A stretch of 29,656 nt of DNA, taken from IMG/VR virus record IMGVR_UViG_3300020400_000534, positions 1 through 29,656 of that record. One strand, written 5' to 3'. The position numbers were made by a program, and so were the translations under genes. The stretch comes from a virus. The notes beneath the pieces were generated by a model. The model did not search any database, was not told the DNA's origin, and was given only the letters and a program-made list of their open reading frames with translations. Positions 1,697-20,939 of the stretch are shown in pieces; within the stretch, counting starts at the first letter, position 1, and the number at the start of each line of letters is the position of its first letter.

Positions 1697-1786
1697 TGGC
1701 GGAAGGGGTGAGATTCGAACTCACGAAAGACTTGCGCCTTTGCCGGTTTTCAAGACCGGTGCATTCAACCACTCTGCCACCCTTCC
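1697..1786 (-). tRNA. tRNA-Ser(UGA) with encoded CCA
   Basis: On the minus strand a complete class II tRNA folds: acceptor stem GGAAGGG (1786-1780) with CCCTTCC (1707-1701), anticodon stem CCGGT/ACCGG around loop CTTGAAA (anticodon TGA), a long variable arm, and a T-arm GTGAG-TTCGAAT-CTCAC. The discriminator G (1700) is followed by a genomically encoded CCA (1699-1697). The length of 90 nt and the long variable arm fit tRNA-Ser. It would decode UCA/UCN serine codons, which are common in AT-rich phage genes. It lies downstream of the tmRNA and a small ORF on the same strand, probably on the same transcript. Confidence 0.96.
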
Positions 1787-2127: not shown

Positions 2128-2233
2128 TGTTTTTCTCCTTTTTAGTGTGTCTATGTGAACACAATGGTTAACGTTTTATTTAGTGCAACGTTTCTGTTGC
2201 CAGGTACGTTGCCAACCCCGTTAGCCTAACGAA

Positions 2234-2263
2234 TTAGGCCGCAAGTGCTAGATTTTCATCTGC
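2234..2263 (-). other. tmRNA proteolysis-tag reading frame (ADENLALAA-stop)
   Basis: GCA GAT GAA AAT CTA GCA CTT GCG GCC TAA encodes ADENLALAA, very close to the canonical bacterial tag ending (ANDEN-x-ALAA). The exact resume codon is not certain: the two codons before GCA read ATA AAT (Ile, Asn), so the tag may be slightly longer. The hydrophobic LALAA ending is the type recognised by ClpXP and related proteases. Confidence 0.85.
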
Positions 2264-2352
2264 ATTTATTGAATGACCCGATACGGTGGTATCATGCCGG
2301 ATATCTACTCTTATCTTTAACATTATACGTCGATCCTATATCACCCCCATCA

Positions 2353-2418
2353 TAAACACATCGCGTCCGCCTTACTCGCCCGGCGCCTCATAGGCCTCAG
2401 GTAACTACGATGTGTTTA
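2353..2418 (-). other. tmRNA intervening segment forming a long processing hairpin
   Basis: The spacer between the acceptor CCA and the coding-piece 5' end has perfect 11-nt arms: TAAACACATCG (2418-2408) and CGATGTGTTTA (2363-2353), enclosing a GC-rich loop. Together with the acceptor stem this makes one helix of about 22 bp, interrupted only by the G3-U70 pair and one C/A mismatch. Excision from both strands of this helix would give the mature two-piece RNA. Confidence 0.75.
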
Positions 2419-2488
2419 TGGTGGAGGTGCAGGGTACTGCCCCCTGGTCCGTTATAACTTATATGACAAGTATCAACAACATCATGTA

Positions 2489-2518
2489 TATTTAAACACA
2501 CTTTGTAATATATGTCAA
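2489..2518 (-). promoter_or_regulatory. Promoter for the tmRNA transcript
   Basis: Perfect -35 TTGACA (2518-2513) begins just after the upstream stop codon. An 18-nt spacer leads to TAAATA (2494-2489); TTAAAT at spacing 17 is the alternative. TTTAAATA here also matches the late octamer TATAAATA at 7 of 8 positions, so early and late use are both possible. The predicted RNA start near 2482 fits the tmRNA acceptor piece. Confidence 0.5.
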
Positions 2519-20330: not shown

Positions 20331-20939
20331 TTAATATACCTTTACTACTTTATCTGCAATACCATACTTGACAGCTTCTTTGGCAGATAACCAAACGTCT
20401 TGTGGTGGTAATAAAACTTCTCTGATTATTTTTTCAGACATACCTGTACAAGCCTTATAGTGTGCCAACATACGTTCTGTAGAAAGTTCAAACTCTCTAA
20501 CTCTTGCAAATAATTCATGTTCTTTACCGCCAGACCCCCATGAGTACTGATGCGATAGTATTGATGTATTTGGAGTAATAACTCTTTTTCCTTTATGTCC
20601 TGCCATAAATGTTAATACACCACAAGATGCAATCAATCCTAGTCCAACAGTTTTAATTGGTATAGCTGAACCTTTCATTGTATCAATTAAGGCAAAAGCG
20701 GCGTGTACCGATCCACCTGGTGAATTGATTACTAATGTAATCTCTTTTGGCCTTCTTGATTGTGGCATTAGATTCTTTTCAATAATTGTATTAATTACTG
20801 GTGCTGTAGACTTTGAGGTGAAGTCTTCAGAAAAGTAAATTATACCTTGTTCCCACATCATCATACCTGGTTGCATTGGATTAGGACCTTGTCCTTTATC
20901 TGGCCCAGATTTTGTTTTTATGTCTTCTTTGGTTGCCAT
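20331..20939 (-). CDS. clpP: ClpP-family serine protease
   Basis: This 202-aa protein has the full ClpP fold markers: INSPGGSVHAAFALIDTM (71-88), catalytic Ser105 in LIASCGVL, catalytic His130 in ILSHQYS, and Asp181 in PPQDVWLSAKEAVKYGIAD. The N-terminal ~25 residues (Gly/Pro/Met-rich) are not part of the catalytic domain. The host presumably supplies the ATPase, or the phage peptidase assembles alone. It could modify proteolysis during infection or act in capsid maturation; the first fits the tmRNA tag present in the same genome. It lies directly between primase and the DsbA-like gene. Confidence 0.93.
   Translation of the reverse strand: MATKEDIKTKSGPDKGQGPNPMQPGMMMWEQGIIYFSEDFTSKSTAPVINTIIEKNLMPQSRRPKEITLVINSPGGSVHAAFALIDTMKGSAIPIKTVGLGLIASCGVLTFMAGHKGKRVITPNTSILSHQYSWGSGGKEHELFARVREFELSTERMLAHYKACTGMSEKIIREVLLPPQDVWLSAKEAVKYGIADKVVKVY

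What the first reader, a model, noticed from the sequence alone, without database searches (positions are those of the whole stretch)
2175..2482. Phage-encoded, circularly permuted two-piece tmRNA
The gene order is acceptor piece, intervening hairpin, coding piece. The 7-bp acceptor stem with G3-U70, encoded CCA, GGATCGACG-type 5' region, P2 pairing between the pieces, the ADENLALAA tag and the stop in a UUCG-type hairpin all fit a functional alphaproteobacterial-type tmRNA. It sits among phage genes with its own TTGACA promoter. Phage tmRNAs have been predicted before, but a permuted two-piece version in a T4-like virus would be notable. It may take over ribosome rescue or redirect tagging during infection, perhaps together with the phage ClpP.
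Basis: partly seen in the sequence, partly recalled or inferred. Interest (0 to 1): 0.88.

Follow-up and report, generated by a model that had tools for sequence, protein, structure and literature searches.

The report
Phage tmRNA carrying a hidden RNA
The sequence is a genuine ribosome-rescue RNA gene, of a split form already known from marine phages; what looks new is that the piece cut out during its processing is a conserved phage-only RNA, and in related phages the same spot often holds a small protein gene.

Summary
Minus-strand 2514-2182 is a complete circularly permuted, alphaproteobacterial-type tmRNA: Rfam alpha_tmRNA 159 bits, tmRNA_permuted 105.8 bits, ARAGORN tag ADENLALAA. It sits in a T4-like phage, and synteny in independent contigs argues against misassembly. 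The 'intervening hairpin' is the unexpected part. Its 70 nt (2418-2349) belong to a structured RNA ('motif A') found in 24 other viral contigs, always inside the intervening sequence of a permuted tmRNA. Seven base pairs change on both sides. It has no Rfam match and was not found in 297 Pelagibacteraceae or 190 alphaproteobacterial genomes. Near-identical copies sit in tmRNA backbones only about 60-70% alike, on five different acceptor stems. Viral intervening sequences span 4-277 nt (SAR11 hosts: 11-13). Of 59 large ones, 22 hold a Shine-Dalgarno-preceded ATG reading frame over half the insert, against 2 expected, and one family shows strong purifying selection (29 synonymous, 6 nonsynonymous codon changes). 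Best reading: a functional phage tmRNA whose intervening sequence is an exchangeable cargo site. What motif A does is unknown.

The parts
2513..2518 (-). TTGACA, putative -35 element; the -10 (TTAAAT, about 2495-2490) is weak
   Evidence: Sequence; the scan did not accept the -10; 70% of 152 viral tmRNA upstream regions have a >=10/12 sigma-70 match against 6% of shuffles
2419..2480 (-). Acceptor piece: 5' strand of P2, T arm (2446-2430), acceptor 3' strand CACCUCC (2429-2423), encoded ACCA (2422-2419); the true 5' end is unknown
   Evidence: Rfam alignments, sequence
2349..2418 (-). Intervening sequence (70 nt) holding conserved structured RNA 'motif A'
   Evidence: Covariance model R1, trained without the window's subfamily, hits 2420-2348 at 50.9 bits, E=3e-8; covariation; no Rfam match
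2342..2348 (-). Acceptor 5' strand GGGGGUG, pairs with 2429-2423, G3-U70
   Evidence: Sequence; stems covary in relatives with G3-U70 kept
2182..2348 (-). Coding piece of the tmRNA
   Evidence: Rfam RF01849 to 2182
2271..2301 (-). PK1 region (not modelled as pairs by Rfam); sequence replaced by an unrelated block in relatives L174/L190
   Evidence: Alignment A2; inferred from position
2234..2263 (-). Tag reading frame ADENLALAA, resume codon GCA, stop TAA
   Evidence: ARAGORN; tag DNA identical in 54 of 59 matches in relatives
2224..2239 (-). Hairpin holding the tag stop codon
   Evidence: Sequence, fold
2185..2212 (-). 3'-terminal hairpin GCAACGU...ACGUUGC with ACCUGGCAACAGAA loop
   Evidence: Rfam alignment, fold
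1697..1786 (-). tRNA-Ser(UGA), syntenic neighbour
   Evidence: ARAGORN, Rfam tRNA 61.2 bits, synteny in L174/L190/L195

Best explanation
A T4-like marine phage carries its own permuted tmRNA. The transcript is cut by the host's tRNA-processing enzymes, after CCA at 2419 and before G1 at 2348, into an acceptor piece and a coding piece that pair into a working alanyl-tmRNA. It then rescues ribosomes with host SmpB and adds ADENLALAA, which ends in LAA as ClpXP-type degrons do. The same two cuts release the 70-nt intervening sequence. This is not a plain spacer but a phage-specific structured RNA, one of many cargoes that marine T4-like phages place at this one position where foreign sequence does not alter the mature tmRNA. 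Shown by sequence: the anatomy, acceptor covariation, motif A and its covariation, near-identical motif A on diverged backbones, and small reading frames in relatives' inserts. Inferred: processing, alanylation, release of motif A as a stable RNA, and that cargo gives the phage an advantage. What motif A binds or does is not known; a regulatory or decoy small RNA made with the tmRNA is my leading guess.
For: tmRNA: Rfam 159 bits and ARAGORN. In a tag-selected set that imposed no G3-U70 or stem sequence, 40 distinct relatives use four acceptor 5' strands (GGGGGTG, GGGGCCG, GGGCCTG, GGGGGCG) with matching 3' strands, and all 40 keep G3-U70. Motif A: 13 distinct sequences; P1 has 4 compensatory positions and all 130 inner cells paired (42-85 when slid); P3 has 3 of 3 compensatory positions and 36/39 cells paired (7-23 when slid). 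A model built without the window's subfamily finds the window at E=3e-8. Of 25 exact-pattern contigs, 23 have motif A exactly in the intervening sequence; the other two are one unrelated sequence; L312 adds one more. Cargo 100% identical while the acceptor/coding pieces are 73/61% (L249-L251), 69/60% (L259-L260), 65/61% (L190-L248). Site in general: set, n=107, median 79 nt, 70 of 107 at least 45 nt, against 11-13 nt in 28 SAR11 genomes and median 33, max 61, in 38 other alphaproteobacteria. ORF cargo 22/59 against mean 2.1, max 7 of 200 shuffles; L063-L135 29 synonymous vs 6 nonsynonymous codon changes. Neighbours are T4-like genes: gp32-type SSB, gp41-type helicase, UvsX, NrdB.
Against: No RNA data: processing, release and stability are untested. 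P2 folding energy is not better than shuffles. Other blocks of these tmRNAs are also exchanged (PK1 region differs, tag and 3' domain shared), so cargo swapping may be part of general mosaicism at the locus. Motif A's covariation rests on 13 related sequences, and P3 is only 3 bp. The viral set is metagenomic contigs; the two isolates checked (HTVC008M, Mosig) carry short inserts without ORFs. In several ORF cargoes the frame runs past the RNase P site into the coding piece.
Confidence: 0.7

Rival explanations
1. The intervening hairpin is only a processing aid: a long stem presents the CCA and G1 sites to RNase Z or RNase P, and its inner sequence does not matter.
For: A closing stem beginning UAAACAC and ending GUGUUUAUGA recurs in many inserts; 65 clusters among 90 distinct inserts show that no single sequence is needed.
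Against: The inner part of motif A is conserved to the base across backbones about 60-70% alike and covaries; SAR11 and several phages manage with 4-13 nt; many inserts encode proteins.
Confidence: 0.2
2. Inserts are selfish elements (palindromic repeats or parasites) that hitchhike in a site where they do no harm, with no benefit to the phage.
For: Same insert on unrelated backbones; some host intervening sequences hold internal repeats (L348, L349); a repetitive element and one tRNA gene in intervening sequences are reported in PMC11915505.
Against: Motif A occurs nowhere else in the collections searched, whereas a mobile element should be found at other sites; ORF cargo families differ from each other and one is under strong purifying selection.
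Confidence: 0.15
3. A captured, decaying host ssrA picked up by recombination, with no function in the phage.
For: ssrA genes are common recombination and integration sites; sequence diverges abruptly right after the 3' end at 2182 between the window and L008/L011.
Against: Acceptor stems covary with G3-U70 kept; tag, stop hairpin and 3' hairpin intact; promoters conserved; tag ADENLALAA is not seen in 29 SAR11 tag calls or in the alphaproteobacterial set; many phage lineages keep it.
Confidence: 0.05
4. The intervening sequence is a glutamine-type or other known riboswitch controlling the tmRNA, as proposed for Melnitz.
For: Buchholz et al. place a glutamine riboswitch in the 3' domain of Melnitz ssrA.
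Against: No Rfam riboswitch reaches even E=1 in the window's intervening sequence or in 38 other viral tmRNAs scanned permissively; Mosig's tmRNA region likewise. A wholly new aptamer is not excluded.
Confidence: 0.1

Closest known systems
Alphaproteobacterial permuted (two-piece) tmRNA, Rfam RF01849/RF04321 (Caulobacter, SAR11)
   Same: Gene order, TLD with GGCAGUA loop, G3-U70, encoded CCA, resume codon GCA, stop hairpin, 3' hairpin; model match above threshold.
   Different: Phage-borne; tag ADENLALAA not seen in the SAR11 genomes read (ANDKFALAA, ANESYALAA and others); 70-nt structured intervening sequence instead of 11-13 nt.
Two-piece tmRNAs of marine T4-like phages: Melnitz, Mosig, HTVC008M (PMC9004378)
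   Same: Same kind of gene in related Kyanoviridae-like phages; nrdAB about 70% identical at DNA level to Mosig and HTVC008M.
   Different: HTVC008M and Mosig have different tags (ANFNEYALAA, GEDNFALAA) and different short inserts; Mosig's insert resembles that of metagenomic L180/L184, which also suggests shared modules. That paper describes a riboswitch, not cargo.
Intron-form tmRNA (group I intron in the T loop, sometimes with a homing endonuclease gene; PMC11915505)
   Same: Foreign, sometimes protein-coding, sequence inside a tmRNA gene that is absent from the mature RNA.
   Different: Here the site is between CCA and G1 and needs no splicing; the small ORFs are not recognised by Pfam or PHROGs.
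tRNA gene or repetitive element in a permuted tmRNA intervening sequence (single cases in PMC11915505)
   Same: Same site.
   Different: Those were isolated bacterial or nominally archaeal cases; here a recurrent pattern in phages with many cargo types.

Membership tests
Alphaproteobacterial permuted tmRNA (RF01849) | Covariance-model score above curated threshold over the full model | tested here: met
   159 bits vs 50, positions 1-355
Alphaproteobacterial permuted tmRNA (RF01849) | Permuted order: acceptor piece, intervening sequence, coding piece | tested here: met
   Sequence and ARAGORN tmRNA*
Alphaproteobacterial permuted tmRNA (RF01849) | 7-bp acceptor stem with G3-U70 and CCA | tested here: met
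   GGGGGUG/CACCUCC-ACCA; covariation in relatives
Alphaproteobacterial permuted tmRNA (RF01849) | Tag frame with Ala resume codon and hydrophobic C-terminus, stop in hairpin | tested here: met
   ADENLALAA, GCCTAA-TTCG-TTAGGC
Alphaproteobacterial permuted tmRNA (RF01849) | P2 pairing between the two pieces | tested here: inconclusive
   Present in the Rfam alignment; cofold energy not below shuffles
Alphaproteobacterial permuted tmRNA (RF01849) | Pseudoknot PK1 upstream of the tag | tested here: inconclusive
   A segment of the right length and place exists; pairing not tested by covariation
Alphaproteobacterial permuted tmRNA (RF01849) | Transcript processed to two pieces, alanylated, SmpB-bound | not testable with these tools
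   Needs RNA from infected cells
Glutamine riboswitch (glnA RNA) in ssrA, as claimed for Melnitz | Match to the Rfam model | tested here: not met
   No hit even at permissive thresholds
Group I intron-form tmRNA | Insertion in the T loop with group I intron core | tested here: not met
   T loop intact (GGCAGUA); insertion lies after CCA; no Rfam intron match
Motif A as a new structured RNA class | Compensatory base changes supporting a structure | tested here: met
   7 compensatory positions in P1 and P3, slid controls lower
Motif A as a new structured RNA class | Absent from known RNA families | tested here: met
   No Rfam 15 match
Motif A as a new structured RNA class | Expressed as an RNA with a function | not testable with these tools
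   No RNA data available

The most novel reading that the evidence does not exclude
Marine T4-like phages use the intervening sequence of a permuted tmRNA gene as an exchangeable cargo bay. Host tRNA-processing enzymes cut one transcript into a two-piece tmRNA plus a released cargo: a phage-specific structured RNA (motif A in the window) or, in other phages, a small protein's mRNA or a tRNA-like RNA.
Probability: 0.5. Interest if true: 0.8.

Novelty: new variant of a known kind. Interest (0 to 1): 0.6.

Why it matters
Why phages carry tmRNAs is an open question. If the intervening sequence is a cargo site, one answer is that the gene is a self-processing expression platform: a housekeeping-RNA promoter plus host processing enzymes yield a stable rescue RNA and a second product. 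It also gives testable objects: a covarying phage-only RNA of unknown function and families of small, often membrane-type, proteins that annotation misses because they lie inside an RNA gene. It would explain why phage intervening sequences are long and varied while those of SAR11 hosts are a fixed 11-13 nt.

Tried and rejected
Misassembly: rejected by synteny and 98%-identical contigs. Glutamine riboswitch or other known RNA in the insert: no Rfam match. A complete tRNA in the window's insert: none; ARAGORN calls in other inserts run on the insert alone are mostly implausible (odd anticodons, overlapping ORFs), so only T-arm-like sequences are claimed. Motif A in hosts: none in 297 Pelagibacteraceae by pattern or 190 alphaproteobacteria by model; the tool warns that an empty answer without a positive control is weak. 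BLASTN for the tmRNA or motif A in named phage records: nothing. Two collection scans were wasted by a wrong gap range. A relaxed motif A pattern gave one new true member and unrelated coding sequence. Melnitz itself could not be fetched by the accession I tried. P2 support by cofolding failed. MAFFT misaligned motif A's 3' half, so covariation was counted on an anchor-based alignment in Python.

Full report
On the minus strand, 2514-2182 holds a complete permuted tmRNA. Rfam gives alpha_tmRNA 159 bits and tmRNA_permuted 105.8 bits, and ARAGORN gives tmRNA* with tag ADENLALAA. The parts are T arm 2446-2430, acceptor 3' strand and ACCA 2429-2419, intervening sequence 2418-2349, acceptor 5' strand 2348-2342, tag 2263-2234 with its stop in a UUCG hairpin, and a 3'-terminal hairpin 2212-2185.

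Where it lies. The window is an IMG/VR fragment of a T4-like phage. Its nrdAB is about 70% identical at DNA level to Pelagibacter phages Mosig and HTVC008M, and it has gp41-type and other helicases and a PAAR protein. L008 and L011 match the window at 98% from 2182 through 16073 and 7591. L174, L190 and L195 repeat the order nrdAB - tmRNA - tRNA-Ser - ferredoxin. Misassembly is therefore unlikely.

What was already known. Buchholz et al. 2022 (PMC9004378) described the two-piece tmRNA of T4-like Melnitz and counted 53 phage two-piece tmRNAs, 50 of them marine or aquatic. HTVC008M (ANFNEYALAA) and Mosig (GEDNFALAA) also score. The tmRNA database paper (PMC11915505) lists 79 phage tmRNAs, calls the excised part the intervening sequence, and mentions a tRNA gene and a repetitive element found there in single cases. 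So the gene is a new member of a known kind.

Is it functional? Fifty-eight viral contigs encode the ADENLALAA tag, nearly all in permuted form. Among 40 distinct ones, chosen without any demand on G3-U70, the acceptor strands of the two distant pieces change together and all keep G3-U70. Of 152 viral tmRNA upstream regions, 70% carry a sigma-70 match of 10/12 or better, against 6% of shuffles; the window's own -10 is weak. The tag DNA is identical in 54 of 59 matches. P2 is only supported through the Rfam alignment, not by folding energy.

The intervening sequence. In the window it is 70 nt and folds better than all 200 shuffles. Its core, AGUUACC-nGA-hairpin-AGUAAGG-GACRC, was scanned in viral contigs: 23 of 25 hits lie exactly between CCA and G1 of a permuted tmRNA, L312 is a 24th, and the other two are one unrelated sequence. 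Thirteen distinct sequences show compensatory changes at four P1 and all three P3 positions; cells paired drop from 36/39 to 7-23 for P3 and from 130/130 to 42-85 for P1 when the partner is slid. A covariance model trained on the other subfamily finds the window at 50.9 bits, E=3e-8, in 856 kb. No Rfam family matches it, and it was not found in 297 Pelagibacteraceae or 190 alphaproteobacterial genomes.

Exchange. Identical or nearly identical motif A copies sit on five acceptor types and with several different tags. L249 and L251 share 100% of the insert but 73% and 61% of the acceptor and coding pieces; L259-L260 100/69/60; L190-L248 100/65/61. Another insert, in L047 and L050, shows 98/67/53. 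Other blocks are exchanged too: the PK1 region of the window is unrelated in sequence to that of L174 and L190, while tag and 3' domain are shared. The locus as a whole is mosaic.

The site in other phages. In the set, which was not chosen for its insert, 107 viral tmRNAs have inserts of 4-266 nt, median 79, and 70 are at least 45 nt; the longest in the wider set is 277. Twenty-eight SAR11 genomes have 11-13 nt; 38 other alphaproteobacteria picked without regard to length have median 33 and maximum 61. A few hosts chosen for long hits reach 333 nt, some with internal repeats. Ninety distinct viral inserts of 40 nt or more form 65 clusters.

Protein cargo. Of 59 inserts of 80 nt or more, 22 contain a Shine-Dalgarno-preceded ATG frame over at least half the insert; shuffles give 2.1 on average and at most 7. 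L063 and L135 differ by 29 synonymous and 6 nonsynonymous codons, with 29 of 42 base differences at third positions; L067 encodes a relative of the same membrane-type protein. In L067 the frame begins after GGAG inside the closing stem and its stop lies in the 3' strand of that stem, followed directly by the acceptor GGGGGCG. Neighbouring genes of such loci are T4-like: gp32-type SSB, gp41-type helicase, UvsX and NrdB. The cargo proteins tested have no Pfam or PHROGs match.

Mechanism. Position explains tolerance: anything between CCA and G1 is removed by the cuts that mature the two pieces, so the insert can vary freely without changing the tmRNA. That the insert is released as a stable RNA, and that cargo benefits the phage, are inferences. 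For motif A I favour a small RNA made with the tmRNA; regulator, decoy and new aptamer cannot be told apart here. A pure spacer is unlikely because 4-13 nt suffice elsewhere and the inner part of motif A is conserved and covaries.

Limits.

Verdict. Observation confirmed; the tmRNA itself is known in kind; the structured, exchangeable intervening sequence, and protein genes at that site in relatives, were not found in the literature searched and make it a new variant.

Noticed in passing
L007, L009, L014, L165, L170, L173, L176-L178, L185, L197, L203, L209, L212: Viral permuted tmRNAs with the same ADENLALAA tag but only about 33-35 nt between GGATCGAC (or its variant) and the resume codon (70-75 in the others): PK1 appears to be missing, a miniature tmRNA.
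   Followed up: partly
L067 5446-5207 minus (also L063, L135, L129, L070, L060, L117, L052, L102, L140, L168 and others): Small protein-coding genes with Shine-Dalgarno inside the tmRNA intervening sequence; several look like short membrane proteins; no database family.
   Followed up: partly
L060, L117, L079, L187, L113, L032, L164: Cargo frames that run past the RNase P site and stop inside the tmRNA coding piece; maturation would turn the cargo mRNA into a nonstop mRNA.
   Followed up: no
L191, L048, L039, L089, L114: Inserts with T-arm-like GGTTCGAATCC-type sequences, perhaps tRNA-derived.
   Followed up: partly
L252: One viral contig with two permuted tmRNA genes (tags ANDNFASEDYALAA and ANENFALAA).
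   Followed up: no
L016 (Mosig) and L180/L184: The isolate Mosig shares an insert module (ATGGTCCTAGATGAAGGAAATT) with metagenomic phage tmRNAs.
   Followed up: partly
L006/L013 and L061: 277- and 199-nt inserts share a conserved translated stretch YYYTPnEWSRSIGWGxVPDERNT on otherwise different inserts.
   Followed up: no
window 2182: Sequence diverges abruptly from close relatives L008 and L011 right after the tmRNA 3' end, a likely recombination boundary.
   Followed up: partly
window 20331-20939 minus: Clp-protease-family protein (Pfam CLP_protease 117.6 bits; best PHROG head maturation protease); no evidence linking it to the tmRNA tag.
   Followed up: partly
L208: 189-kb viral contig with a standard, non-permuted tmRNA that also encodes ADENLALAA.
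   Followed up: no
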